Below are positions 5,452-57,489 of a stretch of DNA of 64,000 nt, one piece after another. Every line of letters begins with the position of its first letter. The stretch's first letter is position 1. The notes below the pieces were generated by a model. The model saw only the letters and a program-made list of their open reading frames with translations, was not told the DNA's origin and made no database searches. Both the position numbers and the translations under genes were made by a program. The DNA is taken from the NCBI GenBank assembly GCA_008933995.1, contig WARS01000052.1:3100001-3164000 (forward strand), read 5' to 3'. This DNA is from Datnioides undecimradiatus (lineage: Eukaryota; Chordata; Actinopteri; Lobotiformes; Datnioididae).

Positions 5452-5994
5452 TATTTTTCAAAGTCTGAAAACTAAAGGCAGAAACACACCTTTACACGTC
5501 TGCGCGTCGCATGCGTGGGACCTCCAGAAAATAAACTCGCTCATAAAACCGCCTGACATTTGCGCCTGCGCCTCTCAGACGCTCCTGAAGGCGCGGGGTC
5601 CGGTCCCCTGCTGGGTGTAATTTGTGAGGCAGTGACTCGGCCCCGTGATGCGTGTGACTCACGTTTGCTCAGAAGTTTCAGATGTGACTTCCCGCATGTG
5701 TTCCCCAGGAATCCAAAGAACACTGTGTTTCACTCCAGCCATATTCCCATGTAGGTGATTTGCTGTGGACTCTATGGCCGCTGGCAAGCCTTGTTTACTT
5801 TCAGCACCACGGACAGCGACCAAATATCGCCTCAGGGCGTCAATGGGCTCAAAAACAAAGCCTCAACTAGAGTCCATTACAATATTTTATCTGCAAATAC
5901 AAAGCATTCTCAGCCTGAATACTGATTAGCTGCTTTAATTATATCTCAACAGGACTGCTGCGATCCAGGTAGGGGGTGGATTACTGAGCAGGCT

Positions 5995-6600
5995 AAAAGA
6001 GGCGCAAAATAACCACAAAGGGACACAAGACAGCCAACCGCAGACGCAAAACAAAACAGAAATAGATGTCAAACGACCAAAGAGAAACCAGAAGCGACCA
6101 CGAAGACACAAAAACGGCTGCGGGGAGATGCAAAATGACTACAGAGAGATGGAAATCTTCAAAGAGACGCAGGATGGTTGCTTAGAAATAATGAATGACA
6201 ACAGAGGCAAAAACAACTACAACATGAAGAACAACCACGAAGAGAAAGACAAAAAACAACAAGGGATAACAAATACATGCAACTTGACTACAAAGAGACA
6301 GCAACCACAAAGACACAAGGCGACTACAAGGAGATGCAAAATCACTGCTGTGAGATTTGAAGTGACTGGAAAGAGACATAGGAAATTACATCAGAGAGAC
6401 AAAGATAACCTACCAATAGATGCAAAAGTGCTACAAAGAGACAACAGATGACTACAAAGATACAAAAATTGATTACAAAATGATTCAAAATGACTTCACA
6501 GTGACAAATAACAACAACTAAGAGGCAGACGGTGCCTAGAAAGAGACGCAATATGACCACAATCTGTCACCATACGACTACAAGCTGATGCAAAACATGT
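5995..6600. repeat. degenerate minisatellite, unit about 21 bp (CACAAAGAGACGCAAAACTAC-like)
   Basis: The stretch is built from imperfect repeats of a purine-rich unit of roughly 20-22 bp that reads ACAAAGAGACACAAAA-NGACTAC. The same motif recurs at 15,490-15,645. This kind of array is common in fish genomes. The array gives long open frames on both strands (for example 6128-6451), which are a by-product of its composition. Confidence 0.75.
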
Positions 6601-35309: not shown

Positions 35310-35385
35310 TCAGAGGAGGTCGGTTCCATCGTAGACGACAGGCCGGTCTAGACTCAGATGGTACAGCACTTTCTTTGAGATGAAC
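35310..35385 (-). CDS. fyco1: fyco1 coding exon 17 (end of GOLD domain, stop)
   Basis: It encodes residues 1468-1491 plus a TGA stop at 35,312-35,310 and ends [12 protein letters not shown], close to the conserved C terminus of the family. The acceptor AG is at 35,387-35,386; the first base completes Arg1467. Confidence 0.93.
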
Positions 35386-38300
35386 CTGATTAACAGGAGA
35401 TGAGGAGAAATGGCTGCTGCAAAAACTTTATGTTTTCTGATTTGTGATTGAAAAGGATTTTGAAGGTAAGACAAGCAGCGACAGACCTGGAGAAAGAGTT
35501 GTCAAAGATGAGCGTGTATTCCCCGGGGTACCTCACTTTAAGTTCCCCCTGGATTGTCTCTTTGTGGGAGTTGCATCGAGTCAGTGGGATCAAGACCTGC
35601 GGAGAGCAAAGGGTAGACATCTTGTTTGACATTTATAGCGACGCGTCTGCATACATTAGGTGCAGGTCTGACAGGGTGAGAGCATGAAGAGAGGCGGTAG
35701 GGATGAGGGTAGATGTCACTTCCCGCATATGAAATCCTGTTGAATCCCTCATCTGAAGGTTGTGTAGGTTAGGTTCTTTGGTGGGCATCTTATTTACATA
35801 TGTACTGCTTTTATTTCAGTCACTATCACACCTAAGACACTGAACTCTGTACTGAAAGGCTGGAGGGCCTGTCGCTGCATATTTTGTGACTGTGATATTC
35901 AATAAACCTGCCCTGGCGTGTTTTCTATTTCGCTGTGAGGGAAAACAGTGTTGTTGCTGCTGCCGCTACAGAAGTAAACACAGTGTTGTATTAACTGCAC
36001 TTTTCACCACTCGGCAAATATCAAAAGATGCATTTTCCACACGCGCGACGCAGTGAACCCGCAACCTGAAGGTGAGCTCGCTGTTGCACTGCTAAATCTG
36101 ACGTACCCTCTGTCATACATAATCTGGTGTCTGACCTTGGCCTGCTCCAGCGGAGTCTCTGCACTCTCCCTGTAGACCACACTGAAGGAGATGCTCTTGG
36201 GTTCAGAGGTGAACGTCCAGCTGACAGTTGGACCGGGAGCGCTCACGGTGATGGGGATGGTGCTGTAACAGCTGGACTTGATGAAGAGCTCCCTGGAGCT
36301 GTCCCCAAAACCTGAGATGTCATCAACCGTGAAGCGGACAGAGAGCCTGCGGCACGAGCAGTAAAACATTTGGGTTATTGTCGGGCTGCAGCTCCCTATG
36401 CAAAACAGTGAAAACAGTATCATGGACGTATCTATACCAGGCCCGGGGGGAGGTGCGTCGTATTTTTGTTTAATCTATTATTTCCTGTTTACAGAAGTTT
36501 ATTTAGGAACCAGACTGGTCTTTTTGTTTGAGTACGTAATTCTTTGTTGGTTAGTTTAATTCTTGTTTGTTACTTTGCTGTTCGCCTTCCCTGAAGCCAA
36601 AATATCCTTTTAATTACCGAGAAATAAACAGCATTAACTGTTCCTGTTCCTGGTTCCTGGGAGCTGGGAGGAGGGGAGCCTCATTCATGCTGCACCGCGC
36701 TCAGCTGGACCCTAACGCCCTAACGCCCAGCTGACACATCTAGATTTAACAAACCGGTGAGTTTTATTGTTTAAATGGGCTGATTAATAGATCAGATTGT
36801 TTCAGCCCCGTGAGCTTTCACAGGAGGATTCTCAAAAATGTTGCGTATTGAAAGAATTAAGTTGCTGCGTTTTCTGTGCAGGCTGATATATTTAAGCAGA
36901 GCCGAGATGATTCATCCGTCCATGAGTCAATCAGCACTCGTTCGATATTTGATATTTTTAAAACAGAAACAAACATTTGACAGTCCAACTTCTCAAATAT
37001 GCTCCTGTGCTGCAACTATTTGGTCTTTTATTAATGAAACTGTGGTGGTTACTTTGAATATTTTCACATTATTTCAGTTTTTATTCAGTTGTCGGACACG
37101 CTATGGACATCAAAATCAATGCAGCAGATGTGGTTGTCCTATATTGTTAGGTCAAAACATGGCACTTACTGTTCCCACAATGCAACTCAACCACAAACAG
37201 TTTGGTCATCTACTGATTTCCAGCAGAGACGAGGAGCGACTACAGAGGAAACCCGCTTCTTTCTCACTCCACATCTCAACATTTTCAAACTCATCAGCAC
37301 CAACCACTGCTGACTTTAATACATCAGATTTCACTGAGCTTCCTCTGGACCTTTAACAGTCCTTGTACAACTTTTCCATATGCAGTAGCACCCCACGTGA
37401 CCTGTAAACAGACTCTGTTGTGTGAAATGTATGGTTCCCCTTTAAAATAACATGACGTGACGTCTGTAAACTTTTACCAGCTTCGCAAAAACAAAGATGC
37501 TCTTAATACAATAGAAGTGAAACAGACTATCCTACATTCAGGAACATGGTCCACCCACACATGGATTAGTTTCATGGTTTACTTCCTATCTTGTAATTTA
37601 GAGTGAAGATTTCACCAGAACAAATAATGCTGAACTGAAACCTTGTGACTGCATCCGCCCTCGAAGCTTACCAGACGCAGCTTTCACCACAATGTGAAAC
37701 TCACGTGAGTTCTCCCGACTTCAGCAGGCAGATCTCTGCATCCTGCACCGCAGCACTGAGGTCCTCTGTATTTTCTGACGCGATGTCTTCGGCACTGGCG
37801 CTGCTGTTTCTAGCAAAAACAATGAATGTTTCAGTCCATGCATAATTCCTATGAAGTTTTCTCTTCTTTCTTTTCAGTGATAGAATAAAGTAAAGTGAAT
37901 CAGGGAAACTATGCAGTATCATCCATATGTAGGCATGGGAGTGAACGTGTTGTAGAATATTGAATTTCTTTTCACTGCAGCGAAAATGTCCAGTTTTCTA
38001 AACGTGATGATCGGCAAAATCATGCTTGAAACAGACTGAGCAGATTGTTTTGAAGGCGCCGTGTTGTAAACAGAAAATCAGCTTCTGTGGTTATTTTCAG
38101 TCTCTCTCATCAGGTTTATAATCTCCATCACACATAGCCTCATATCTCCTGCGGGGGAAGGCATGTGAGATACTTACAGCTGTGCTGCCCCCTGCTGTCC
38201 GTGTTCAGGAGAGCAGGCGGTGGCAAAAGAGAGGGAGTCGCTGTCGTAAACCCTGCTCACTTCCTCCTCCGTGATGATGTCGAACACACCATCATCCAGC

Positions 38301-41300
38301 TTGTCGCCGTCATCAGCTCCTATAAATTCAACACCCACAACATTTTATACTCCTCTTTATGCTCCTTCTGTCTGTCATGATGCCAAGTCTGCAAACACAC
38401 GTGTGTTGTTCTTTACCTGCAGCGCCAGTCACAGCTCTCCCAGCCTGCAGCAAGCGACTGAAAGGTGTTCCCGGCGTGCTGTTAGTCACTTCTTCCTGTG
38501 GGTGGCGCTCAACCACTGCATTGTGCTGGTTGTAACAGTCCCTGCAGCAGCGCTCTCTGTTGCCGCCCTGCTGGGTGCTGACTGTGTTACTGCAGCAGTA
38601 GTAGCAGAAGGGACGCCCACACAGTCTGGGAATAGATAAATGAAATGTGGCTTATTAGAGCGCGGAGGGGAGTTCATTTGTAATGATGCAAATGTTTTAT
38701 TGACAATGTTTGAAATCATATCAGATCCGTTTCTGCACGTAAGAGATACAAATAAGACACATACACATCAGAAAATGAACAATTTCTATTTTTGTCACTG
38801 ATAAAAAGTGCATTTAAGATTATTTTTGTAAAAAAAAGTCTGAGATTTCTGCAGAAAGTTGAAGCAAAATTGCAAATTTACAACAGGAAAAGCACGGTGT
38901 GTCTGTGGTTTTCAGCTCTGACCTTCAAATAGTCAAGTTTCTATTCTGAGTCTCTAACTGTGTCCAAAGAAGGGCCTAACTGTGGACGACAAGACACATT
39001 TTTATAAATATACAATGTGAGATTGACACTTAGTTTCGTTGAAAGTGTGGCTAAACTGATGCTTACTGTGACCACTGCTCAAAGCCCTGTGTGAAATTCT
39101 TCCATTCACAGCTCATTTTGCTCTCAACAATGTGTGTATTTGCTGTTGTTTTTACACACAGACCTGATGTGTGCATACAAATATCGGCCCAGTGATGCAT
39201 CAAGATACAGGCAGCAATTATACCGCTTCCCTACTGAGCGGTTTAACTCTCAGACATGTTCATCAACATGCTCGTTATGTAAATCCTCACATGCAAAATA
39301 CCGTTATAACCGGACAAACGTATATATGTTTCATGCATTTCACTAATCTGCAGCTGATAACAGATGAATATTCGGTTCATTATCAAATATCGGTGCAAGT
39401 TGTATCACATGTTGTAGAGGCAGTTTTACAAGAATAACTCACGTGCAGACACTCTGACGCTACACAGAGCGAGACCGACTTTTACAAAAGGCAAAGCGGT
39501 TCCCGAACAAGGAGCAGCAAAGCCGTATCTGTAAGGAGCTCTGATGGTGTGCTGAGCTGATTACAGCAAATGGGAAGTGAAACAGACAAACAAAATGTCG
39601 TGGAACGACGGTGACGGTTTCTTTTGGCGCTTGACTGTCTCTACCTGAATAATCACAAACAGAAATAGAAAAAGTCGTTTTGCACTGATTGATGACTGGA
39701 TTTACTTTTGGCTTATGAGTGCAATGTTTGGAGTGAACGACGGCCTTCTGTCGAGTTTAAACCAACTGCGATTGCGCTTAATGTGACACACGTATATGTT
39801 TATCATAACCCAGAGGACCACCTGACCTGCAGTTGTACTTGCGGAGCCACCAGTTGAACTGACTGCGGCAGCCCACGCAGTAGTTGATGTCCCTTTCTGT
39901 CTCCTCGTCCCGCAGTTTCTGCTCGAACTCCAGAGCGTCCGTCTTCTGCCACAGTGCGTCTTTCTCCCTGCAGAGAGCGCCATCGAGCACGTTCGTGTTT
40001 GCAGTAATAATCACACAGGATACTGCAGATCGCGCAATCCACGTGGGCTGCTTGTGGCCATTATAAAGTTTAAAAAAAAAAAAAAAAAAAGGCAGCAATC
40101 CAACGTGTCTAAATCCTGATTTCTGCTAATTTAAATCCATTTAGCCTCGCTGATAAATACACAGACAAGCAGAGGTAATATGGGGCGCGTCTCTACCTGA
40201 TGAGCTCGACAAGCCGTTCCTCCAGATTGATTTTGGTGCGGTAAAGATCATCAAGTTCAGCAGCAGTCCTTAGATCAAAGCTCTGTTTGTCCTGCGTGAC
40301 TTTCCGTAGGTTTTCGCTCATCTCCTGACAGGCCAGCTGAGCCGCTGCGAGACTACCCTCAGACCTAACACACACACACACACACACACGGGGTAATTTA
40401 TAATATGTCCAAACACACAGGCTTTCTCAGGTTTCAATTATAAAGAACAGTAAGAACAAGGTAGATAAGACACACTAAACAAAAACAGTCTGACGTAAAC
40501 ACATGATCAGAAAGTTGTTTTCTTTTCCACAGAGCTCCAACTCGCTGCAGAACGTGTGATTATGAATACTGTATCTCACCTTGATAAATTCCCTTTCAGA
40601 TGGATTATCTCGTCTTCTTTCTGCTGGATGAGATTTTCAGACTCGGCCATCTGGATGTTTTTCTCCTCAATCTGTTGGCAATATCCCCGATTCTCAGCCT
40701 GCGATCAGTACGGCGAAGCAACACATTATTTCTGCTTCTTTGTGAATTATGCCTGTGACCATAATGTTATGATTACTTCTATCACCGATACAGACGACGA
40801 ACCTGGATTTTGTGTTTTGCACACAAATACAGCTTCCTGATAGTTTGTCAGAGGCCATCATTTAAAGTTAAAGTTTCATGCCTTTGCTTAAAACCTCTTT
40901 AGGTTTACTATCGCCGCACCAGCTCCTCAAGTGACTTAAAACACCTTTTGACTGCTTTAGGGATTAGAGACTGAATAATCTGCTTAGAATGTAGCACCGA
41001 ACATTTTGTGGGATCCTCTCACCTCGAGCTGTGAGAGTTTCTTCTCCAGGTCGACTGTTTTCTCCTGCTCGGTCGTCAGCTGCAATCGCACCTCCTGTAA
41101 CTCCTGATTCACAGTCTGGGGGAGAGTGCATTACATGCTGATCAGCGATGTATAACAGCAGATCTGCCGACGCCAATGAACATGGAACAATCAAGCAGTA
41201 TGTTTACATGACCAGGTGACCAGGGTGTTCAGAGAAATCAGGTTACGACGGCGTCAAGCTGCACTAAATGCATGCGTACACGCAGCAGGTCAGTAATCAC

Positions 41301-44300
41301 AATTTATCAACTGTACCATGAAAAGGCATTATCACAATACTAAAAATTTAAACTTTGACACAATGCTAACTAAAAACAGAAACAAACAGGTTTAGACGCT
41401 CTTATTATGAAATTAGGACTTTTTACTTCCTCTGAATTTCTCGCATTCTCTCGGCCTTTTCATTGTTCCCCCTGCAGCAATCCACGATGATGGAAGTTAC
41501 AATATTACAAAACAATTCAAGCATCAACACTTTTGAAAATCCCAGGGGGTACTTTATGTAACTAAGTTTCACTCTGACTAATGCGGACTGTTTGATTGAT
41601 TATTATTGATTATGCAATGGTATTCAGAGGGCTGCCTTCTTAAACGAATACCTTGATTGAAGAATAGATTTCTCTGAAGCATTCTTCATATAATACAATT
41701 AAAAATGATGTTGCCGATAATTATGGTTTCAGAAATCAGCTTAAAATGACAAACTGTAACTTGGCTACTTAAGTGCATGTAAAAATATCAAAGCATGCTT
41801 CTGAATTAGCTGAACACTTTGTGACTGACCTGGATCTGGCTGCTGAAGTTCATGGCTTGGCTGCTGAGCTGCAAGCGGAGAGCCTGGATCTCCTCCTGGT
41901 TAGTCTCCTGTGCAGCTTTAGCCTCCTGTTGCACTTTGCTTAGCTCTTGCTGCAGCTCCTGCTCGGATGCCAACGAACCATCCTTGTTGTTGAGCTGATC
42001 GAGCAGTTGCTGGTTTTCCTCGTGTAGCTGCTCCATGCAGGTATTCAGCCTCTCTGCCTCCTGGGTCGCCTCTTCCTCCAGCTCCTGAAGCTTTGTTGAC
42101 AAGCCCTCCCAGCGCAGACGAGCCTCTTCATTCTCAGCGGTAAGCATACACACGTGTACTCCGAGTTCAGCAGTTTCGGTGTTGGCTCTATGGAGTGCCT
42201 CCCTGGATTCACTGTTCTCCAGACACAGTGCATCATAGCGCAGCTTCAGTTTATTATACTCCTCTCTCGAGGCAGTCACTTCTGCAGCCAGACCTGCTCG
42301 AGCCTGAGCTTCACCATCACGCTCCCGGATAAGGGCCTCCTCTCGCTCCCGGGATCGGAGAATCTCATCCACATGCCGGCGGTTTAGCTCCTCAACCTGG
42401 GCTTTGAGCTGCTCTGTTAAGACACGGAGATCCTCTCTAGAGGACTCTGTCACCTCCTGCAGCGCCTGAACTTTCATCCTCTCCTCAGTTCCTGCTAGAA
42501 GTTGAGCCCTGAGCTCCACCACCTCCTCCCGAAGCCGGTGCACCTCCCTTAGGTTGAGTTCAAGTTGAGCCTCAGCTATAACCAGCCTGAATGGGGCCTC
42601 TTTGGTTTCCACTGAAGCTGTCTGATGCTCATCGTGAAGCTTCTGCATTTTTTCATTGCTCTCTGCAGCTCCTTTCTCATCGTGCAGCTCCCCGGCCCTG
42701 CTCTCCAGCTCCTCTGCTCTCGCTTGCAGAAGCCCACATTTAACAGTCTGGTCTCTCAGCTTGGCCTCAGTTTCTTGGAGTTTTTCAAGCAACTCTGCTT
42801 GGCTTCTTTGGGACACTGTGAGGTTACTGTCCAACTTTGCAGCTTTGGCAGTGAGCGAGTCCAGTTCCTGTTGAGTCGTGGCCAACTGTGTCCTCAACGA
42901 GGACTGTGCCTCAAGAAGCTCATTGTTCTCATGCTTTATCTTCTTCAACTGAGAATCGGATACTTCCTTCTGAACAAGCATCTTCTGAACGATCTCCTCC
43001 AAATGCAGGTTTTCATCCAGAAGCTTCTTCTCTCGATCTTCCACACGCATGTTTGCAGCCTCTACTCTGCCCTTCAGCTGCTTCTCAGAGGCCCTCAAAA
43101 GTGCCAACTGGTCTAACATGGCTTCCCTGCTCTCTGTCAACTCTGTAATGCTCTGCTCACTCTTCTTCACTGTTTCCAGTAGCTTAGCGTTTATTTCCAT
43201 TAGACTGCTGCATTGGATCTTGTAGTCCTCAGGGCTCTCGGTTTGATCACATGAAACATCGTCATTATCAGCAAGTCTGGAGCTCAGACTTTCTTTCTCG
43301 ACGTTGAGCTTCTCCAGCTGCTCCTCTAAATGCTTGATTCTCTCTGAACTGGTGGCTAGCTCTTTCTCTCTGTTTTTTAGAGTTCGTCTTACATCCATGA
43401 GCTGGCTCTCCAGTTCCTCGTTCTGGCTGCTGCTCATACTGCATCTCTGCTCTTCCTCCTCCCTCTCCTCCTGCAGTCTTTTCCTCAGCTCCTCTGCCTG
43501 TCGCTCTCTGCACTCCAGTGATGCCTGTAGATCCTGAAGCTGTGCTCTCAAGTTCCCTGTCTCCTTCTCTTTCAAAGTCAGCGCCCCTTGAATGCGCCCA
43601 ACTGCGCTTTGGAGCTCCTCCAGCCGCCTGAGTGCGTCCTCACGTTCGGCATGGGCTCCGGCTTTTACTTCGGCAAGCTTCTCCTCACTGTTCCTCAACT
43701 CTTCTTCCCTGAGTTTTAGCTCCTGTGAGAGACGCTCAGATTGCCTGGCCCGGTCCTCAGCCTCTCGCTTTGCCTCCAGCCTCTCCTCCTCTGCTGCCTT
43801 GAGTTTATCCAGGAGTTCCTGGATTTTCCAGGCTGAGTCGCAGTAGCTCGCTGTTTGTTGTCCCTTTTCTTTAAGAGCCTCGTCCAACTTCGAGAGAAGC
43901 TCCATATTTTTATTCTCGGCAGCTGCAAGTCTTTCTTCAAGTTCACTATTTATTGCTTCCCTACAGGTCTGAAGGTGATTTACTCTCTCCTGATTCTCTG
44001 TTTCCTGGCTTCTTTGGGCTGCTGTAGTCACTGAGGGGCCAGAGCACCTCTGGGCTGCTGCAAGCTGGCCTTGAAGGTCTTTCACCACACCTTTAAGCTC
44101 AGCAGCTTCTTTGCCCAACTCCTGCACCTGCACAAGTAGCTTCTGCTGTCTAAGTTCAGACTGGTCAAGCTCAATACGGAGGTTCTCTGCAATGCTGCAA
44201 GGAGACGGCTCCCCCAGTTCTCCCAGTTCCCTGAGGAGACTATGATTTGAATCTGGGACTGGGAGAAACTCCTGCGCCTGAGCGGAACAGAAGACGTCTG

Positions 44301-47300
44301 GTCAGGTGCCTTAAAGTACAAACAGTCACCGAGTATTGACTTCAATATGTTTGTACCTGTGAGTGTGAGTAGCTGCTCACAAGACTGTTGATGCTGGAGC
44401 AACGACTGGGAGGCTTCCACAGGAAAGCTGATGAGGCGGTGCCTAAGGTTCGCCTTTAACATAATGAGATGACAAATATGAAAATCAATTAAAAAAAAAA
44501 AGTGTATTTCCTCAAGTTCCTTTTCTATGATTTCAAACTTCAGACTCAGTACACTGTTTTCAGAGGGAGACCGTGTGTAGAAGCTTCTAAAATGACCGTT
44601 AAAGGAATATGTTCTGATTTGTGGCATATTTCTACTCTGCTATGGTGATGAAATTGTTTTTATCAAACTGTCCAGTCATGATTCATGTGAGGGAAACAAA
44701 GTGTGAGAGTTTGTGTGGGTGTTTCATCAAATAATCTCTGGTCACTCATGGGAAATGGAAACAAGCCAAACAAATATTTGTCCTCAAGTAAGAAACACAG
44801 GAGGTGTCGACCATGTTAGATACATGGTGCATCTGTGGGCTCTAATATATTACTGCACAATAACCCTGCAAAGAAACAATGCATTAGTGAATTATATCAT
44901 GTTGATTTTATAGTGCATGTGACAGGTGTTAATGTAACTCTTTTATTCCCAGGTACTCTTCTAGGCTTGTGTTGCCGTAGGTGTTGCTGCACGCACGCTG
45001 CAATGAAAGATTTCAAAAATAACCACAATAATATGATGCACAACAACAACAACAACAACAAAAACTATGTTTTTATAATAAACTAGTGCCAGTACACTGA
45101 CAGCAAATTGATGACAAGGAAGTGAAAAGTTTTGGCAAAGGTGCTGACGTGAGGAACAGCGATCAACGCTCACACAGTGTCGACACCCACAAGCTCTCAC
45201 ACACACATTTACACACATGTGTGAATGTGCAGAGTGATCAGATAATTAAGTGTTACTTCAAGTTGTGAAGTACCCAAAATTGCCTCACTACAATTTTACA
45301 TTAGCTGCGCTTAACCGGTGTGTTATTTTGAAATAACTTAACGTCTGTCTCCGATCACTTTACAAATCATTTCCAACCCCGGGGCAGAAGAGCTACACGC
45401 TTTCATTTCCTTACTTAAGCATCTGCTTCTTCTTCCCGCATCTCAAACAACACCCACATTATTTGTTTTTCTTAAACAAAAGCAAGGAAACAGACAAAGA
45501 GTAAACTGACAACTGTAGGCACAGGTTACCTTGCAAATCTCGGCCAATCGGCATCGAGGTCGTAACCTCTCGCTGCCACGTCAAATTGGATCTGGTTGAG
45601 CTCATAAAGGTGGTTGATTATGTCAGCAGTGAGGTGAGACTTAAGGAAGGGACTCCGGGCATAATACCAGTCACTGTGTGAGAGGAAAACAAACAAACAA
45701 ACAAAACAAAAAAGATAGTAAAGATATTTAAAGATATTTTTTCCTTTGTACACTAAAACATTTACTGTTAATAAAGCAATTTGTGCACTTTATGTTATGA
45801 TTCATGCTAAGATATTATATTATATATTATATCTTATCTTATTCTAGGTTCTTTAATTTATCCTATCTTAGCTTAGCTTAGCTTAGCTTTACTGGTCCCA
45901 TGCAGGGAAACACAGCACAGCATAGACGCACTAGCACTACAGCAAAAAATGACAAATAAGCATATGAATATACTTTCAAAAACAATATTTGCACTTGAAA
46001 GAATGTAAATAGGTGCTTATGGTTTCTGCAGATCGTGGGCGATTGCAGCATGTGATACCTTGTCAGACACAAACACACAGCCTACAATATGGAACTAAAT
46101 CACTTTTAACTTTGTCTCCAATTCCATATTTTCCTCTTGAGGTCGAAATGTAAAACGTTAATGAGTATTCTGGTCAAATGGACTTCAAAACAAAATGGAC
46201 ATTTGGTCTGACGAAAGGTTAAGGAACTGAGATTGGCGAGCGCGTGTCAGTGGTTGGTAGAGTCTGACCGCTATAAGCCGATATCACTGGCCAATCATAG
46301 CCAGTATCATTGGCTCTGAGTCATTTAGCATACACAGCTACTGTAAAGAAATCAAAATGCAACCTCACTAATGGTAAGAACTACAAACAGTTCAATCATG
46401 CACTGCGCATGCTGGAAAATTAAAAAAAAATCTGAATCCATGAACCCATCATTTCCCTTTTTAATACAACTTCAACATGATCCTGTCCCTGCTGGTCACA
46501 TCTGTTTGTTCTTAGTGCAGCAGCCATAGTTCGTCACTGTTGAAGCTGCTGTTCACCTCTCGACCGTGCAGCAGCGAATCACGAGATCATGTGCGGGATC
46601 TCAGACATCAGTGAGAAACGGTTTCCCGATTGGAGCTTTATCGATCGTGAGAACACACTGCAGAATGTGTGGACGTAACAAAATGTATATGTTGAGTATT
46701 TTTACTCAAGTACTGTACTTAAGCACAGTTTAGAGGTGCGTTTTCTTTACTTGGGTCTTTCTATGGATTCATGTCCATTCAACTAATGCTCATGCTAATG
46801 CTAATGCAGTTTCGATCCGTATTAAATGAGTAATGTTTTCCTATTTCCGGTGTCAAAGCTACATATTTTATGCATGAACAGTTAAATATTGTACTTTTTA
46901 GTCCACTGCATTTATTAAATCACAGCTATAGTTACTGTTTAAATCAATATTTTATAAGTAAAATAAATGATCAGCCAAATTTAAGTGTTCTTTACACCTC
47001 AAAAAGGCTAAATAGAAGGAGGCTGGTGTCTTTTTTGGGTTATTATTTAACATATTAAACAATATCTAGGTGAAATATATCCTTCAGTTAAGCCACTTAT
47101 TTAAGAAAGCAGCCTTCTGAGTTCACTCGCATAGTTGCGTCAGAGCTAAATCAGTGTAAAATCCAGACAGAAAAGATAAATTATCATTCCAGCTTGGTTA
47201 TCCTCAGTCTAAATCTCATACCGGTCAGGTTTCTAATTGTTAGTCTGTGTGGCTTTTGTGTTTTCTGTAAAAAAACAGAAATGAGATAGAGATCAGGAAA

Positions 47301-50300
47301 CGGAGAGTCACACTTCCTAAGAAACAGCACCATCAAAACATGGACTGTCTCATTGGTGCCAAACATCTCAACACAACTTCTGTCTGCAGTTTTGTTTTTT
47401 TTTAGAGTGCAGTGTGCCTGAAATGTTGAAAAATAAAAGACAAAAATATATGAAACAATAAAATAATAGAAGCACTATAATCCAATAAAAGTGTGTATTC
47501 ATCCAGTAAAGTAATATTTAGTTTTTTTTCTATTAAAATATTGTTTTAAAAGCAATTTATTGCACATTGGCGTTCACATAAAACAGTTTATTGATTGTAT
47601 CTAAGGGAAAAAATCTACATTGACATAGAGCCATGTAAGCGCTCACCCATTCAAAGGAACATCTGTACACTGCTGGATCTCAGTGGATCACAGCATGTGG
47701 TGTGTGTGCGTCTGTGAAAGAGTGTGTCCACAGACCTCGTGACCTTTTGGTTTATGAGACACTGCTGCAGCGTGTCAGCGAGACGCTGGTGAACGAGCGA
47801 ATAGCGGATGAAGGCCCGTCCTTTCCCCAGCGATGTCTTCAACTGCGGACACACAAACATAAACACTTTGGTGTGCGTTCACACCCACTTACACACGCGC
47901 ACAACCTCAGTGTGATAAGAGCCTGTAAAACAGAGCACTTCCTTCTTTTTTTCAGCTGCTCACATCAACACATAAATCAACTTTACTTCAATTAACACTC
48001 TGGTGTCTACGTTTCATTTCAGTGTGTTCAGTGACACGATGAAAATACTAACTGAATAGCTCTGATCATCATAACGTGGTGTGATTTGTGGGCGTTTCGC
48101 TGGAAAAAAATGACTCAAAAATCCAAATAGTTGCTGTTTGTTTATCTGTTGATCAAATAAAAAAGTAATTTCGAGCTCTAGTTCTAATTTGACCCCAATT
48201 TAAACTTGTGTTTCCTTAAAAAGAGTCCCGACACAGAATGTTTAAGGATGTCTGAGTTTAAAAGTCACCACTGCACAGGCAGGAAATCTGCAGTGCCCGT
48301 CTGTGAGCCCAGACTCTCCAATACATTAGCAGATGGAGGGATTTAAGTAAGACAACAGACACACAGATCCACCATAAGGACACCAGCTGGAGACTTACGT
48401 CAGTGACTGACAGACAAGAAACAAGAAGAGTAAAAGAAGAGTAAAAGTAAGATTTTAAGTAAGAGTACTAAATGTTCCCAACAAGTAATTAACAGATACT
48501 AACTAAACTATGAGATTTTTCAAGAGAGAAAACACTGACTATGGTAAATCCCTGAGAAAACATTAGACATCTCACAGGTTTTGCTAATCAAGGAGCATAA
48601 AATGAGACACGTGGTCTTACTGCCTTTTAAAAACAGGACTTATATTCATCACATTCAGCTCCCTCACGCTGGAATACAGACGAATACAGAAGAGTTTTTC
48701 CTAAAGAATGAATCGATTGGTCCGGCAACACGAGCCGTCCAAAGATATGCAGTGAAATCATAACAAGCATATTATAAATAAACACGTAATAATATAGCAG
48801 CATTATGCATTTCATTCACTGTCGTTTCAAACAGGCGCCGGTGGCAGCCGCTCAGATGTGACGATGTGCTGATTTGCTGTCGTACACGACTGTAAATCGA
48901 TGCCTTTGAGTTAAGGAAAGTTGCTAAGACAGAAACATGAAGAAGTCTTTGCCTCGCCTTTTCGAGGTTTACTACATTTTAATCTGTGTCGGCATATTCA
49001 GTGATAACTACAATAACTGCATGCCGTAGCCCTAAGAGAGAGAACAACACGAGTTTTACATGAAGCTTTCTAAGCACAACCACACTCAATATGGTTAAAA
49101 ACACCTGCAAATGAAATACAGCACGAACTAGGACTAGTTCAGCTACAGGTATTCCAGTATGAGGCTCACCGCTGTGAATCCCCGGGACAGAAGGTGAGGA
49201 AGAAACAGTACAGTACAGCAGGTACGGCTGTAAGGCAGCAAGTAAATTAGCAGCAATGAGTCTTACTGTACCTGACCGAGCAGAGGATTAGTTACACGGT
49301 TATACCGTCGCTGCGTATTTCTGTGTGTCGCACGCCATGGCAGGGCCGAGATGCAGACGGTGAGTGTGCGTGTTTGTGTGTGCTGCAGAGGAGGATTACC
49401 TCAGGGATGGACTTAACGAAACGGATGCCATCGTTAGCTCCCTTGATCTTAATCAGGCACTCGCAGAAGTAATCCCAGTAGTCTTTCCTCTGACCAAGAA
49501 AGGTTGTCTTCTCTTTCTGATCAAACTAAGGAAAACAAATCACCTTATTAACACACTGCATAACGATGTACAAAAGGCCTGCTTCTGTTTGGCGACCAAT
49601 CTGAGGGTCAGGGCCTCTCAAAGGAGACCCATTTCGGTTTTTCTTGTGAAATACATAAAGTTCTTTCAACATGCAAAGCACTCCCACTTTAGCATTCGTC
49701 TTCTGAGCCCTTCAGGCAAAGCTGGAGACTCCCGATCGGGTGAGCCACCCGACCACATTGTCATACCGGATCATTATGATGAATGCTAAATAAAAAAAAC
49801 TTAATAAACTTAAAATAAAAAAGTTGTTTTTGTTAATGTTTCTTGCTTTTATGTGATACCATACCTGCAGCAGGTACTCCAGTTTATAGAAGAACTTGTG
49901 CAGGTTGGCGCTGTCATCGGTTACAGGTTCACCACACTCCATGTGCTCTTTACTCAACTCTAACACGGCATCTGACCAAGACATTATAAACACATACACA
50001 CACACATAAATTTCAAATTGGGTTACTGGTTAAAGACTGAAGGCAATCAAATAGAAAATACATACAGCTTTTTACTCCGACAGTAAACTCCCTGACATTT
50101 CTATTAGTCACAGATCTATAAGGACTAAATATTTCTTGATCAAAGTCTGTGACCGATCTTTATTTCCTGCATGGTCCATTATTTATAAACAAAAACCTAA
50201 ATATACAAAAATACACAAATAAACAACTCGTGCTGCATTGCAAACACTGGGCAACACGCTGCACGAGAAGGTGCTCATAGTGCGTGTGAACAGTTTGGTT

Positions 50301-50375
50301 ACCATGCAGATCTCTGATTATCCTTTGCAGTTGATTATCTCCAACTGATGATGATGAGGAGGAGGAGGAGGCCAT
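35310..50375 (-). CDS. fyco1: fyco1: FYVE and coiled-coil domain autophagy adaptor, 17 coding exons, 1,491 aa
   Basis: FYCO1 links Rab7- and PI3P-positive late endosomes and LC3-coated autophagosomes to kinesin for plus-end transport. I rebuilt the coding sequence from splice sites: 50303-50375, 49865-49971, 49400-49525, 47736-47842, 45530-45673, 44357-44453, 41830-44277, 41023-41115, 40580-40698, 40197-40364, 39827-39967, 38417-38625, 38178-38319, 37705-37809, 36136-36346, 35487-35596, 35310-35385. The exons total 4,476 nt; all introns are GT-AG and all phases agree. The domains are RUN (about residues 36-170), coiled coil (about 219-1160), FYVE-type finger (1191-1238), an LC3-interacting motif VFDIIT (1289-1294) and GOLD (about 1352-1491). 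The length is close to the human protein (1,478 aa). The start MASS(S)n...QLQRIIRDL matches the family N terminus. Teleosts can carry two copies (a and b), and I cannot tell which this is. The FYVE lipid-binding motifs are altered. Confidence 0.97.
35487..35596 (-). CDS. fyco1: fyco1 coding exon 16 (GOLD domain)
   Basis: Residues 1431-1466, with [13 protein letters not shown] and the [17 protein letters not shown] core, the best conserved part of the FYCO1 GOLD domain. Flanked by AG and GT; it ends two bases into Arg1467. Confidence 0.95.
35668..35730. repeat. copy B of the 65-bp dispersed repeat, inside fyco1 intron 15
   Basis: CTGACAGGGTGAGAGCATGA through GTAGATGTCACTTC differs from copy A (32,557-32,621) by only a few bases. 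Copies A and B lie 3.1 kb apart in the same orientation. Confidence 0.75.
36136..36346 (-). CDS. fyco1: fyco1 coding exon 15 (GOLD domain)
   Basis: Residues 1361-1430. It includes [20 protein letters not shown] and [12 protein letters not shown], which match the family's GOLD beta-strands. The first base completes Thr1360 and the exon ends in phase 0. Confidence 0.95.
37705..37809 (-). CDS. fyco1: fyco1 coding exon 14 (linker and start of GOLD)
   Basis: Residues 1326-1359 in an acidic linker that ends [12 protein letters not shown], matching the conserved start of the GOLD region (human [12 protein letters not shown]). Donor is AC|GTGAGT. Confidence 0.92.
38178..38319 (-). CDS. fyco1: fyco1 coding exon 13 (LC3-interacting region)
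   Basis: Residues 1279-1324. The motif [13 protein letters not shown] carries the core F1290-x-x-I1293 flanked by acidic residues, as in the FYCO1 LIR that binds LC3A/B. The donor CT|GTAAGT joins exon 14 to give Leu1325. Confidence 0.92.
38417..38625 (-). CDS. fyco1: fyco1 coding exon 12 (second half of FYVE finger)
   Basis: Residues 1209-1277, [11 protein letters not shown] through NRERCCRDC. It supplies zinc-ligand cysteines 1210, 1215, 1218, 1235 and 1238. A Ser/Thr-rich linker follows the finger. Confidence 0.94.
39827..39967 (-). CDS. fyco1: fyco1 coding exon 11 (end of coiled coil, first half of FYVE finger)
   Basis: Residues 1162-1207: [18 protein letters not shown] continues the coiled coil, then [19 protein letters not shown] begins the finger. 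The basic motif reads RKYNCR where the family has RRHHCR, and the usual WxxD before the first Cys pair is absent. Confidence 0.94.
40197..40364 (-). CDS. fyco1: fyco1 coding exon 10 (coiled coil)
   Basis: Residues 1106-1160, heptad-rich, ending [19 protein letters not shown], which matches the human LDDLNRTKKYLEERLIELL. Arg codons are split at both ends. Confidence 0.94.
40365..40389. repeat. (CA)n microsatellite at the fyco1 exon 10 acceptor
   Basis: About ten CA units lie directly upstream (minus-strand sense) of the exon 10 acceptor, so the pyrimidine tract is a TG repeat. Confidence 0.85.
40580..40698 (-). CDS. fyco1: fyco1 coding exon 9 (coiled coil)
   Basis: Residues 1066-1104, [20 protein letters not shown] through HLKGNLS, rich in Glu, Lys and Gln in heptad spacing. 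The phases fit exons 8 and 10. Confidence 0.9.
41023..41115 (-). CDS. fyco1: fyco1 coding exon 8 (coiled coil)
   Basis: Residues 1035-1065, [13 protein letters not shown] through KKLSQLE. A 93-nt phase 0/0 exon with AG and GT borders. Confidence 0.9.
41830..44277 (-). CDS. fyco1: fyco1 coding exon 7 (giant coiled-coil exon, 816 codons)
   Basis: A single 2,448-nt exon encodes residues 219-1034, almost wholly coiled coil (Glu, Leu, Lys and Gln heptads), the rod of FYCO1. It begins [13 protein letters not shown] after a CAG acceptor and ends NFSSQIQ before [26 protein letters not shown] near its end matches the human [20 protein letters not shown]. It runs open for the whole length in one frame. 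The first ATG-free part (44,134-44,277) is also coding, so a start at 44,133 would be wrong. Confidence 0.97.
44357..44453 (-). CDS. fyco1: fyco1 coding exon 6
   Basis: Residues 187-218, [20 protein letters not shown] and [12 protein letters not shown], matching the human segment between the RUN domain and the coiled coil. Its first base completes Arg186. Confidence 0.93.
45530..45673 (-). CDS. fyco1: fyco1 coding exon 5 (end of RUN domain)
   Basis: Residues 139-185, [18 protein letters not shown] through [11 protein letters not shown], a conserved block at the C-terminal edge of the RUN domain. Ser138 and Arg186 are split codons. Confidence 0.95.
45825..46060. repeat. possible LINE 3'-end remnant with AGCTT tandem, in fyco1 intron 4
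   Basis: A short TTAGC tandem leads into TTTACTGGTCCCATGCAGGG, then AAACACAGCACAGCATAG. This recalls the tail of LINE-derived fish repeats (TTTATTGATCCC...GGGAAA). Only the tail is visible. Confidence 0.35.
46670..47000 (+). repeat. dispersed fish repeat (ACTCAAGTACTGTACTTAAG family), in fyco1 intron 4
   Basis: The words TTTTTACTCAAGTACTGTAC, AGTTTAGAGGTGCG, TTGTACTTTTTAGTCCACTG and CATTTATTAAATCACAGCTA follow the order of a very common teleost repeat. It is related to the copy at 28.6 kb but better preserved. Confidence 0.65.
47736..47842 (-). CDS. fyco1: fyco1 coding exon 4 (RUN domain)
   Basis: Residues 103-137, [20 protein letters not shown] and [15 protein letters not shown], nearly identical to the human RUN core. 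It ends two bases into Ser138. Confidence 0.96.
49400..49525 (-). CDS. fyco1: fyco1 coding exon 3 (RUN domain)
   Basis: Residues 61-102, [20 protein letters not shown] and [23 protein letters not shown] 126-nt phase 0/0 exon. Confidence 0.96.
49865..49971 (-). CDS. fyco1: fyco1 coding exon 2 (start of RUN domain)
   Basis: Residues 25-60, [20 protein letters not shown] and [16 protein letters not shown]. The acceptor AG is at 49,973-49,972 and the donor is CAG|GTATGG. Confidence 0.96.
50303..50375 (-). CDS. fyco1: fyco1 coding exon 1 (start codon)
   Basis: It encodes MAS(S)[15 protein letters not shown] with the ATG at 50,375-50,373 and the donor CATG|GTAACC. The serine run comes from a TCC/TCA triplet repeat. 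A CAG acceptor at 50,412-50,410 suggests a 34-nt UTR segment ahead of the ATG and a further upstream non-coding exon. Confidence 0.92.
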
Positions 50376-51514: not shown

Positions 51515-52331
51515 TACAACCCCAATTTCCAAAAAAAAGTTGGGATGCTGTGTAAAATGTAAATGAAAACAGAATGCAATGATCTGCAAATCTCAGAAAC
51601 CCATATTTTATTCCCAATAGAACATAAAGAACTTATCAGATGCTGAAACTGAGACATTTTACCATTACACAGACAATATTAACTCATTTTGACTTTGATG
51701 GCACATCTCAAAAAAAAATTGGAACAGGGCAATGTTTACCATTGTGTAGCATCCCCTCTTCTTTTAACAACTGTCTGTAAATGTCTGGTAAGTGAGGAGA
51801 TCGATTGCTGGAGCTTTAGGAGACCCCATACAGGCAGGCTTTTGAACTGTCCGCTGATAACAAGCTGGATGGTCCCTCTCCTCTTTAGTCCGCAGGACAC
51901 TGCGTCCATGGTTTCCAAGAAGAATTTCAAACTTTGATTCATCTGACCACAGAACAGATTTCAATTTTGCGTCAGACCATTTCAGATGAGCTTTGGCCCA
52001 GAGAAGACGGCAGCGTTTCTGGATCATGTTCACATATGGCTTCTTCTTTACATGATACAGCTTTAACTTGCATTTGTGGCTTGCACGGCGAACTGTGCTC
52101 ACAGACAGTGATTTCTGGAAGTGTTCCTGAGCCCATGCGGTGATGTCCAGGAGATAATCATGCCTCTTTTTAACGCAGTGCTGTCTGAAGGCCCGAAAAT
52201 CACACACATCCAGGTTTCACTTCCATGGAATAGCAGAACATCTCAGTTTCAACATCTGATATGTTCTTTATGTTCTACTCGGAATAAAATGTTTTACACA
52301 GTGTCCCAACTTTTTTGGAACTGGGGTTGTA
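51515..52331 (-). mobile_element. Tc1-like DNA transposon, internally deleted, with long terminal inverted repeats
   Basis: It is bounded by TA at both ends. The left end (TACAACCCCAATTTCC, then AAAAAAAAGTTGGGATGCTG) and the right end (CCCAACTTTTTTGGAA, then CTGGGGTTGTA) are inverted repeats. Similarity continues inward over about 140 bp (AACATAAAGAAC...ATCAGATG...GAAACTGAGA), with one insertion in the left arm. At 817 bp it is shorter than a full Tc1 element. It lies between the fyco1 promoter and the first receptor. Confidence 0.9.
51764..52207 (-). pseudogene. Tc1-family transposase remnant
   Basis: The minus-strand frame carries SVSTVRRASHKCKLKLYHVK, VLWSDESKFEILLGNHGRSV and KEERDHPACYQRTVQKPA, all typical of Tc1 transposases. 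WSDES holds the first catalytic Asp. After QKPA the frame jumps to a tail like the protein's end (AIDLLTYQTFTDSC), so the central catalytic part is missing. The N-terminal DNA-binding part is also incomplete. It cannot encode an active enzyme. Confidence 0.88.
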
Positions 52332-52578: not shown

Positions 52579-53660
52579 GTAAAGTATCCACATTTCTTGA
52601 TTATTTGTGTGATTTTAAAAGTATATTTCAGCAGGAATGTTGTGTATCCTTATTATACCTGGCTCAGCCGTAAAGCAGAGATAAAGAAAACATTAAATGG
52701 CTAATACAAACATACCATGGAAGGAGTGTATTACTGTTGACTTGACCTGAAAACATATGATCTTAGTCTGCTATTTATGTTATGTGTTGGCATCTTGCAT
52801 GAAAACTAATGATTTTCTGCAGATGGAAGTTGAAGCAATTTGCCTTATTTCATCCCAACTGGTGAGGAGTTCCACAGGGATCAGCAATAACATGATAAAC
52901 CTAAGCTGGAAATCGTATAATTATATAAAAAAATGGCGATGCATTATGTTACTGATCATACCACCCAAGACAACACAAAAAATCATGAGCAAAATAAAAT
53001 GCCCATCCCAATAAAGGCACAGTGAACTGTGCTGTTTTCTCTGTGTCTTCCTGTCACTGGTTTAAAGTGAGCAGGAGTAACTTTAAACCAGTGAGAGAAA
53101 AGAAAAAAGGTGATGTCACATATTTCCACTCAAAAAACAATATTTAAATTGCCTGCAGTGACATTTCTGGCACTGAATGTTAACAAATCAGTGCATATAT
53201 TTGAATGAATTAAAAAATATGTATTTATAAGCTGTAACCCTGAGTGTTATTTATTTAAATACAATTAACTGATGTTATGCAGAAATGTGATATGATTTGT
53301 TTTCAAGTTGTGTTTGTGTGTGAGTAAATTGTGAAAATCTAAATCTTAATCTTAAAGATGATGAAATCTCAATCTATCTAAATATCATTAGAAGTCTGTG
53401 AGAAAATTAGGTTTTGGTAACTTGGGTTAACTAGTATATAAAACAATAAGATATGTATGATAATCACATGTCCCATGAATGAAGTTATACACCAAGGTGC
53501 TAAAATAAGAGTTTACATTTACACTGTAGCTGTGGATGTCTATGAAGAAATCCATGAGTAACATGTTTTTAGTGTAATGATCGAATTCCTCATCATTATG
53601 TTTCTGTAATCTGATCTGCGTGACTTGCCCATCTAACCAAGCTATTTCTTTAAAATCCAG
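52579..53660 (+). other. proposed 5'-UTR intron of the first receptor gene; no gene seen
   Basis: AT-rich stretch with a short open frame at 52,757-53,014 that has no recognisable domain. It contains the perfect 15-bp inverted repeat at 53,054-53,094. Confidence 0.35.
53054..53094. repeat. perfect 15-bp inverted repeat, 11-bp loop
   Basis: TCACTGGTTTAAAGT (53,054-53,068) and ACTTTAAACCAGTGA (53,080-53,094) are exact reverse complements around GAGCAGGAGTA. The outer flanks (TTTTCTCT and GAGAGAAAAG) can extend the stem imperfectly. Confidence 0.92.
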
Positions 53661-53672
53661 ACTTCTTCTTGG

Positions 53673-53715
53673 AGTGACTGCAAAAATGGCAACAGTTGGA
53701 GATTTTGCAGTCACT
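53673..53715 (+). promoter_or_regulatory. perfect 13-bp stem whose loop begins at the receptor start codon
   Basis: AGTGACTGCAAAA (53,673-53,685) and TTTTGCAGTCACT (53,703-53,715) are exact reverse complements. The 17-nt loop (53,686-53,702) begins with the ATG of the receptor. In the mRNA the stem would place the start codon at the 5' edge of a hairpin loop. That it controls translation is inference. Confidence 0.6.
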
Positions 53716-54780
53716 GCTACAAGAGGTATCAGCGAAGAGTCAACGTTCAACGCCAATGACAATTATTCCGATTACTATGACTATGATGAGGAGTATGAAG
53801 ATGAACTGTGCAACAGAACAAACATTGCAGACTTTGGAGCAACCTTCACGCCACTGTTCTTCTCTGTTGTGGTGCTCCTCAGTCTTTTTGGCAACATCCT
53901 GGTCATTGTGATTCTGGCAAAATATGAGAATCTTAAATCCCTCAGCAACACCTTCATCCTGAATCTGGCTGTGTCAGATCTCCTCTTCACTGCAGGTTTG
54001 CCCTTCTGGGCCTACTACCACATGTATGGATGGACTTTAGGGGAACCTGCATGCAAAGTGGTGACCTTTGTCTTCTACATTGGTTTCTACAGTAGCATTA
54101 TCCTCCTCATCCTCATGACTGCTCACCGTTATGTAGCTGTAATGAATCCCCTGTCAAACATTGTGTCCATCAAAGGTTTCTATAGTGTCTTTGTGTCTGT
54201 GGTCATTTGGGCGGTGAGTGCATTAGGCTCCACTCCAGCTGTCATTTTCACAGAAGTTGTGGACCAGAAAGACTGTGGATATGTGAGTTCTTACTGGAAA
54301 TTATGGGGAGTCTACCAGCAAAATATTCTCTTCATAGTGAGTTCGGTGGTTTTTATTTTTTGCTATTCTCAGATCATATGTAGGTTGCTGCGTCCCACTG
54401 CCCAAAGAAGAAAGAACAAAACTTTGAAATTAATTTTCATTCTCATGGTTGTGTTCTTCGTGGGGTGGACACCTTATAATGTAGTAATATTCCTACAGTC
54501 CTTGGAGTTTTGGCAAAAAAGTGAAGAGGTTGACCCGAAGGACTTGGGTACACACTGTGAACGGTCCAAACCACTGACCTACGCCTTCTACATCAGCCGA
54601 CTTTTTGCCTTTTCACACTGCTGCCTTAATCCTGTGTTTTATGTGTTTGTCGGGGTGAAATTTAAAAACCATTTGAAGAGAATGCTGAAGACCTGGGGCC
54701 ACAACAACAGCGGCATCCGCAACAGGCAAAGCCGACTTACGATCACATCGCTAACAAGTGGTGAAGAATTCTCAATGTAG
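53686..54780 (+). CDS. xcr1: XCR1-like chemokine receptor (class A GPCR), 364 aa
   Basis: A seven-helix chemokine receptor at the plasma membrane of leukocytes. XCR1 in mammals binds XCL1 and marks cross-presenting dendritic cells; the fish ligand is not shown here. The N terminus is acidic with sulfatable tyrosines (Y27, Y30, Y31, Y33, Y37) and N-glycosylation sequons at N26 and N43. TM1 holds GN (69-70) and TM2 LAVSD. Cys123 should pair with the ECL2 cysteine in KDCGY. The TM3 motif is HRY (147-149) rather than DRY, an XCR1 hallmark. TM6 has WTPYN and TM7 NPVFY. FVGVKFKNHLKRML after TM7 closely matches human FVGVKFRTHLKHVL. The frame is open upstream to 53,620 without an ATG, so I place the start at the first ATG. 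AATAAA lies at 54,919-54,924. It may be one of several fish xcr1 paralogues. Confidence 0.93.
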   Translation: MATVGDFAVTATRGISEESTFNANDNYSDYYDYDEEYEDELCNRTNIADFGATFTPLFFSVVVLLSLFGNILVIVILAKYENLKSLSNTFILNLAVSDLLFTAGLPFWAYYHMYGWTLGEPACKVVTFVFYIGFYSSIILLILMTAHRYVAVMNPLSNIVSIKGFYSVFVSVVIWAVSALGSTPAVIFTEVVDQKDCGYVSSYWKLWGVYQQNILFIVSSVVFIFCYSQIICRLLRPTAQRRKNKTLKLIFILMVVFFVGWTPYNVVIFLQSLEFWQKSEEVDPKDLGTHCERSKPLTYAFYISRLFAFSHCCLNPVFYVFVGVKFKNHLKRMLKTWGHNNSGIRNRQSRLTITSLTSGEEFSM

Positions 54781-56333: not shown

Positions 56334-56478
56334 GTAAGTTCATTTATATATACTGTAATTTCGTACCATATTTTAAGTAAACTACTTCCAACTTAATTGC
56401 TATCTATACAGGGATTATTGGAGGGCTGAGTGAAGTTTGTTTTGTGTTTATGTGTCCTAGAAAACCTACAGCTCCACC

Positions 56479-57489
56479 ATGGACAGTGGCAGTATGAACG
56501 ACAGTGACTCTTTGGCCTATTTCTGTGATGACATGTTTGACTTTGAAACCATCAGCGGGGTCATCTTCATTTTGATCTTCGTTGTCAGTATCACCGGCAA
56601 CGTTCTCCTCTTGTGCGTTCTTGTCATCTACGAGAAATTGACGAATGTCACAAATCTGTTTGTGCTGAACCTGGCATGCTCTGATTTGGTCTTCACTGTC
56701 ACGCTTCCATTCTGGGCCATCTACCAGCTTCACCACTGGGTGTTTGGTGAATTCACTTGCAAATTTATGACTATGGCTTACTTCGTAGGTTTGTACAGTA
56801 GCATCATTCTGCTGACTGCTATTACTGTGGATCGCTTCATTCTGGTGGTGCTGCACCACTGTCCAGGCTACCCTACAAAGCGGCGTAGGTGTGCAATGGC
56901 CGCCTGTGCAGCTGCCTGGATCATCAGCATTGCTGCTTCCATCAGAGATGCTATTACAGTAAAGGTGGAAACCCAGTGGAACGATATGATGACATGCGAT
57001 GATTCTTCTGATGACTCTGATGTCAACCTGGGATATTATCTCCAAGTTTCATTGCTCTTCTTTCTCCCATTCACCATAATTGTTTTCTGCTATTCTGCCA
57101 TCCTCAAGACAGTTCTGCAGGCCTCCAACAAAAAAAGGTATCAGACTGTGGTGGTGGTTTTGTGTATCGTAGCTGCTTTCTTCATCTGCTGGGGACCTTA
57201 CAACATTCTGCTTTTCATCAAGTCTTTTTATAAACCCGAAGGTTGTTATGCAGAGGAACGCTTATACATTGCCTACTCTATTTGTCATATACTTGCATTT
57301 TCTCACTGCTGCATGAACCCACTATTATACATGGTCTCACAAAAGTTGCGAAGACATCTTTTGCAGCTTTTGCACTGCACCAATCCCAGGACGAAAGAGC
57401 GAGTCACTGGCCAGAGAACTTCTGTTTTTCAGAATGCAGCTTTCACCGCACAAAACTCAGCTGTCTTATTGGAACTACCCTCAAAATAG
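56479..57489 (+). CDS. diverged chemokine receptor (XCR1/CCR-like GPCR), 336 aa
   Basis: A seven-helix chemokine receptor, tandem to the XCR1-like gene 1.7 kb upstream. The short acidic N terminus (SDSLAYFCDDMFDFE) has Cys16, expected to pair with the ECL3 cysteine in EGCYAEE. TM1 holds GN (40-41) and TM2 LACSD with LPFWA. Cys94 starts TM3, whose end reads DRF (118-120) instead of DRY. The second loop (VVLHHCPGYPTKRRR) departs from the usual DRYLAIVHA form. TM6 has CWGPYN and TM7 NPLLY. The ATG context is CACCATGG, an ideal Kozak, directly after a splice acceptor. SHCCMNP and the neighbour support an XCR1-type origin, but orthology to XCR1 or to a fish-specific CCR is open, so I give no symbol. 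Confidence 0.92.
   Translation: MDSGSMNDSDSLAYFCDDMFDFETISGVIFILIFVVSITGNVLLLCVLVIYEKLTNVTNLFVLNLACSDLVFTVTLPFWAIYQLHHWVFGEFTCKFMTMAYFVGLYSSIILLTAITVDRFILVVLHHCPGYPTKRRRCAMAACAAAWIISIAASIRDAITVKVETQWNDMMTCDDSSDDSDVNLGYYLQVSLLFFLPFTIIVFCYSAILKTVLQASNKKRYQTVVVVLCIVAAFFICWGPYNILLFIKSFYKPEGCYAEERLYIAYSICHILAFSHCCMNPLLYMVSQKLRRHLLQLLHCTNPRTKERVTGQRTSVFQNAAFTAQNSAVLLELPSK

What the first reader, a model, noticed from the sequence alone, without database searches (positions are those of the whole stretch)
38417..39967. fyco1 FYVE finger lacks its lipid-binding motifs
The rebuilt protein keeps the eight zinc-ligand cysteines (1191, 1194, 1207, 1210, 1215, 1218, 1235, 1238), but the basic motif reads RKYNCR where the human protein has RRHHCR. 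The upstream WxxD motif is also absent ([12 protein letters not shown] versus human WLGDTEANHC). In FYVE domains these two motifs contact PI3P. I infer weakened or lost PI3P binding with the fold retained. If the fish has a second fyco1 copy, this could be division of labour between duplicates.
Basis: partly seen in the sequence, partly recalled or inferred. Interest (0 to 1): 0.72.

Follow-up and report, generated by a model that had tools for sequence, protein, structure and literature searches.

The report
Fish fyco1 with non-canonical FYVE finger
A fish gene for a cell-transport protein keeps the zinc-finger frame that normally grips one membrane lipid but has changed the gripping residues; such changes are known in related proteins, so it is a modest variant whose effect on lipid binding still has to be measured.

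Summary
fyco1 lies on the minus strand; I rebuilt 16 coding exons (50375 to 35310) as one open frame of 1443 residues. The basic motif reads RKYNCR instead of R(R/K)HHCR. In EEA1 register, the W and D of WxxD are E1134 and E1137. Two separate substitutions in an intact frame make an assembly error unlikely.

The inference is only partly supported. Four basic residues of the contact motifs (R1155, K1156, R1160, R1185) survive. The turret loop reads NWWL, the most membrane-insertive of the six FYVE loops compared. The LC3 motif is kept. In print, FYVE fingers without the histidine pair still serve at membranes: RUFY4 and RUFY3, though both also lean on ARL8, and a plant HN-type finger that binds PI3P and PI5P.

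Best reading: a weaker or less selective FYVE acting beside Rab7 and LC3 contacts, not a dead one; no binding datum exists. Division of labour between duplicates is untested: no other fish fyco1 could be reached, and the genome search gave no answer to 14 requests.

The parts
35310..50375 (-). fyco1 coding region, 16 coding exons, 1443 aa
   Evidence: Exon rebuild, 15 introns all GT...AG, one open frame ending in a stop; residues 6-184 match PDB 7bqi, FYCO1, E 3.4e-93
39827..39967 (-). coding exon 10: end of coil, lost WxxD (E1134/E1137), zinc ligands C1143, C1146 and C1159, turret loop NWWL, RKYNC and two bases of the R1160 codon
39832..39837 (-). codons TAC AAC (Y1157 N1158) in place of the two histidines
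38417..38625 (-). coding exon 11: last base of the R1160 codon, remaining five zinc ligands, R1185 of the RxC motif
38178..38319 (-). coding exon 12 with the LC3-interacting motif VFDIITEEE (from residue 1241)
   Evidence: Matches the FYCO1 LIR peptide of PDB 5cx3, 12 of 21 identical; position
40197..41115 (-). coding exons 7-9: stretch just upstream of the FYVE exons, where FYCO1's Rab7-binding coil would lie
   Evidence: exons; Rab7 site by position only, from PMC7431699; not tested here
45530..50375 (-). coding exons 1-5: RUN domain
   Evidence: Pfam RUN 51.3 bits; 135 of 179 identical to PDB 7bqi
35310..37809 (-). coding exons 13-16: GOLD-like C-terminus
   Evidence: Pfam GOLD_2 26.2 bits, under its cut-off of 28.4

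Best explanation
This is an intact fyco1 whose FYVE finger keeps the two-zinc ligand set, the basic residues of the contact motifs and a hydrophobic turret loop, but has lost residues that make PI3P recognition tight and selective (W of WxxD and both histidines). Most likely the finger still touches endolysosomal membranes, with lower affinity or looser phosphoinositide choice and with little of the pH dependence that histidines confer. The protein is then placed on late endosomes and autophagosomes by several weak contacts at once: coil dimerisation, Rab7 through the coil before the finger, and LC3 through the LIR. Shown: sequence, zinc ligands, intact frame, conserved RUN and LIR. Inferred: lower selectivity, the compensation, and all cell behaviour.
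For: Pfam FYVE 45.2 bits. EEA1 register: W to E1134, D to E1137, HH to Y1157 N1158, while R1155, K1156, R1160 and R1185 remain. LIR and RUN conserved. Precedents, passages seen: RUFY4 lacks HH, yet deleting its FYVE disrupts association with PI3P organelles (PMC7431699, PMC11094054); RUFY3 FYVE lacks HH but contributes to vesicle association together with CC2-ARL8 (PMC8938451); plant class V FYVE has HNCY and WxxG or no such motif, and one member, AT1G65920, is reported to bind PI3P and PI5P (PMC3017826). FYCO1 binds Rab7 by part of the coil before the finger and LC3 by the LIR (PMC7431699).
Against: No binding datum for this finger and no structure model. W1349A, R1400A and basic-motif mutations lower EEA1 binding (PMC8491906), so simple loss is possible. 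Rubicon's FYVE-like domain does not bind PI3P (PMC7431699). The precedents are not clean: RUFY4 left vesicles almost completely when ARL8 was knocked out, and the RUFY3 FYVE alone was cytosolic (PMC8938451). The turret comparison covers 5 of 13 FYVE proteins; the recalled human FYCO1 turret (SWMV, from no call) is already hydrophobic, so the fish tryptophans may not be a compensation. One sequence only; no orthologue was compared over the finger.
Confidence: 0.48

Rival explanations
1. The finger no longer binds phosphoinositides. It is a zinc-stabilised cap on the coiled coil, or a protein-binding site, and membrane recruitment rests on Rab7 and LC3 alone.
For: Loss of W and both His together; a RUFY3 fragment (441-561) holding the FYVE-like domain binds Arl8b (PMC8938454); Rubicon's FYVE-like domain does not bind PI3P (PMC7431699); RUFY4 depends heavily on ARL8 for vesicles (PMC8938451).
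Against: Four basic residues of the contact motifs and a hydrophobic turret are kept. PMC8938451 maps the RUFY3-ARL8 contact to CC2, not the FYVE.
Confidence: 0.24
2. Changed lipid choice: loss of the WxxD Asp and the second His, the two residues credited with excluding other phosphoinositides, lets the finger bind PI5P or PI(3,5)P2, lipids nearer to its late-endosome site of work.
For: PMC3017826 names these two residues as implicated in exclusion and reports PI5P as well as PI3P binding for a plant FYVE of the class in which both are replaced.
Against: E1137 stays acidic at the D position; the first His, which plants keep, is Tyr here; PI(3,5)P2 is my extrapolation. No lipid data.
Confidence: 0.15
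3. The changes are near-neutral and PI3P binding is ordinary, helped by the tryptophan turret and dimer avidity.
For: Basic residues retained; hydrophobic turret; ZFYVE19, PDB 1wfk, has KKEYGCK and is listed with 'PIPs' as its lipid at the midbody (PMC9776629 table).
Against: W1349A and basic-motif mutations in EEA1 lower PI3P binding (PMC8491906).
Confidence: 0.1
4. Sequencing or assembly error, or a wrong exon.
For: Single sequence; no reads or transcript were available.
Against: Two independent substitutions, intact frame through 16 exons and splice sites; no contiguous HHC alternative in the window.
Confidence: 0.03

Closest known systems
FYCO1 (RUN, coil, FYVE, LIR, GOLD; Rab7, LC3 and PI3P adaptor)
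   Same: Same order of parts; RUN 135 of 179 identical to PDB 7bqi, LIR 12 of 21 identical to PDB 5cx3; two XCR1-like receptor genes next to it
   Different: FYVE lacks both histidines and the W of WxxD
RUFY4 FYVE
   Same: FYCO1 'appears to be a RUFY4 ortholog' in PMC7431699; lacks the tandem histidines but is reported at PI3P membranes
   Different: Exact replacement residues not compared here; depends on ARL8 for vesicles
RUFY3 FYVE
   Same: Lacks the tandem histidines; works together with a coil-GTPase contact
   Different: GTPase is ARL8, not Rab7
Plant class V variant FYVE (HNCY)
   Same: Second His is Asn; WxxD changed or absent
   Different: Keeps the first His; CY instead of CR; unrelated architecture
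ZFYVE19/ANCHR FYVE (PDB 1wfk)
   Same: First His is Tyr (KEYGCK)
   Different: Second His is Gly; Arg positions of the motif differ too

Membership tests
FYVE zinc finger | eight zinc-ligand Cys in FYVE spacing | tested here: met
FYVE zinc finger | Pfam PF01363 above its cut-off | tested here: met
   45.2 bits vs 27.8
FYVE zinc finger | FYVE fold by structure | not tested
   no structure prediction was asked for; the finger is spliced from two exons
canonical PI3P-type FYVE | WxxD | tested here: not met
   E1134, E1137 in EEA1 register
canonical PI3P-type FYVE | R(R/K)HHCR | tested here: not met
   RKYNCR
canonical PI3P-type FYVE | Arg of RVC | tested here: met
   R1185 of RCC
canonical PI3P-type FYVE | PI3P binding | not testable with these tools
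   needs an assay
FYCO1 | RUN domain of FYCO1 type | tested here: met
   7bqi E 3.4e-93; next best RUFY3 4.2e-18
FYCO1 | LIR of FYCO1 type | tested here: met
   5cx3, E 0.019 with a 48-residue query, 12 of 21 identical
FYCO1 | GOLD domain | tested here: inconclusive
   GOLD_2 26.2 bits, below cut-off 28.4
FYCO1 | Rab7 binding by coil | not testable with these tools
   position only
teleost fyco1 duplicate clade | YN and WxxD loss fixed in one clade | not tested
   no fish sequence reachable; the genome search unanswered in 14 requests

The most novel reading that the evidence does not exclude
In this fish lineage, and perhaps in one of two teleost fyco1 copies, the FYVE finger has dropped PI3P selectivity and reads late-endosomal phosphoinositides (PI(3,5)P2 or PI5P), or bilayer properties through its double-tryptophan turret, turning FYCO1 from a PI3P sensor into a general endolysosome adaptor governed by Rab7 and LC3.
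Probability: 0.12. Interest if true: 0.6.

Novelty: new variant of a known kind. Interest (0 to 1): 0.3.

Why it matters
FYCO1 links autophagosomes and late endosomes to kinesin, and its mutations cause human cataract (PMC7431699). A natural vertebrate FYCO1 without the PI3P signature would be a ready experiment on how much PI3P sensing FYCO1 needs when Rab7 and LC3 contacts are intact, and on how RUFY-type FYVE fingers without histidines hold membranes, which PMC8938451 leaves open for RUFY3.

Tried and rejected
No relative of the finger in viral contigs (3 pattern matches, none confirmed) or genome contigs (64, none confirmed). A degenerate DNA pattern for GR.FCYYCC gave 5 viral and 8 prokaryote stretches; their 13 translated contexts show no FYVE-like cysteine pattern around the match. 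NCBIfam: no match. No contiguous HHC motif elsewhere in the window. No tRNA. Pfam found nothing in 6 of 7 further ORFs (the seventh is a receptor ORF), in 2 ORFs on the + strand inside fyco1, or in the ORFs 5939-6451 and 10496-11053.

Literature: no paper holds fyco1a or fyco1b. Four hold FYCO1 and teleost: one was looked into at its single FYCO1 mention, the other three seen only as a listing. A wider search (at least 3 of FYCO1, zebrafish, paralog, FYVE) gave 131 papers, of which 20 were listed and none was opened. So I found no description of this variant in those searches, but the library is open-licence only and most hits were not read. Three key primary papers (FYCO1-PI3P 2010, plant variant FYVE 2001, histidine switch 2005) are not held and are known to me through citations in papers read.

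A structure prediction was not asked for: the tool takes proteins that the DNA gives letter for letter, and this finger is spliced from two exons.

Full report
What is there. The finding lies in a gene on the minus strand. From the window I rebuilt 16 coding exons between 50375 and 35310; the 15 introns all begin GT and end AG, and the joined frame is open for 1443 residues to its stop. I chose the joints by reading the sequence; no transcript was available. Residues 6-184 match the solved FYCO1 RUN domain (PDB 7bqi) at E 3.4e-93, with RUFY3 far behind at 4.2e-18; 135 of 179 aligned residues are identical. A C-terminal stretch matches the FYCO1 LC3-binding peptide of PDB 5cx3 (E 0.019; 12 of 21 identical). 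The GOLD-like end scores just under Pfam's cut-off (26.2 against 28.4 bits). Two neighbouring + strand genes are closest to the XC chemokine receptor XCR1 among solved structures; that XCR1 lies beside FYCO1 in human is recalled. The gene is fyco1.

The finger. Coding exons 10 and 11 carry a FYVE domain (45.2 bits, cut-off 27.8) with all eight ligands. Against EEA1 in the alignment, W becomes E1134, D becomes E1137, and HH becomes Y1157 N1158. R1155, K1156, R1160 and R1185 of the third motif are kept.

Chance or error. From HH (CAY CAY) to TAC AAC takes at least one change in each of two neighbouring codons. The frame, splice sites and other ligands are intact, the window has no N, and no contiguous (R/K)(R/K)HHC or HHC(R/K)xxG was found in six frames. 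Error is unlikely but not excluded without reads or a second individual.

What the turret shows. Between the first zinc-ligand pair and the basic motif, this finger reads F-NWWL. On an interfacial scale (values from memory) these four residues sum to -3.84 kcal/mol, against +0.41 EEA1, -0.01 HRS, +0.14 ZFYVE16, -0.56 ZFYVE19 and +0.76 RUFY1. These are 5 of the 13 FYVE proteins hit, those whose alignments had been printed; it is no survey. A finger that had simply decayed would not be expected to keep both the basic residues and such a loop, but this is an inference from one sequence, and the human FYCO1 turret as I recall it (SWMV) is hydrophobic already.

What is known of such fingers. Passages of PMC3017826 describe plant class V FYVE domains in which R(R/K)HHCR is (K/R)(R/K)HNCY and WxxD is WxxG or missing; one, AT1G65920, is reported to bind PI3P and PI5P. 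The same paper says that the WxxD aspartate and the second histidine are implicated in excluding other phosphoinositides; both positions differ here. [quoted passage not shown] PMC11094054 reports that deleting the RUFY4 FYVE disrupts its association with PI3P organelles. PMC8938451 finds the RUFY3 FYVE contributing to vesicle association together with CC2-ARL8, by a means yet to be established; the same paper finds the FYVE alone cytosolic, and RUFY4 almost wholly dependent on ARL8 for vesicles. PMC8938454 reports Arl8b binding by a RUFY3 fragment that holds the FYVE-like domain. PMC8491906 recounts that W1349A, R1400A and basic-motif mutations lower EEA1 binding. I saw passages of these papers, not whole texts.

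Conclusion. The best-supported reading is a non-canonical FYVE that contributes weak or less selective membrane contact beside coil, Rab7 and LC3 contacts; outright loss is the main rival. Membership: FYVE zinc finger met by sequence; canonical PI3P signature not met. Division of labour between duplicates rests on comparisons that I could not make: the genome search did not complete in 14 identical requests, and I found no fish fyco1 in the other collections searched.

Noticed in passing
53581-54780 (+) and 56461-57489 (+): Two neighbouring chemokine-receptor ORFs, both closest to XCR1 in the PDB but only 31-32% identical to each other, so not a recent tandem copy.
   Followed up: partly
35310-50375: No receptor-like sequence was found inside fyco1 by tblastn with the two receptor ORFs, although CXCR6 is nested in FYCO1 in human and in coelacanth and/or zebrafish (PMC3933685 table passage); this may help to tell which fyco1 copy this is.
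   Followed up: partly
51764-52216 (-): Tc1/Tc3-type transposase remnant (Pfam HTH_Tnp_Tc3_2) upstream of the fyco1 coding start.
   Followed up: no
39827-39967: Turret loop of the FYVE finger carries two adjacent tryptophans (NWWL), the most insertive of six loops compared.
   Followed up: partly
40197-40364: The coil just before the finger matches Pfam's RUFY4-like domain weakly (17.3 bits, below its cut-off of 27).
   Followed up: no
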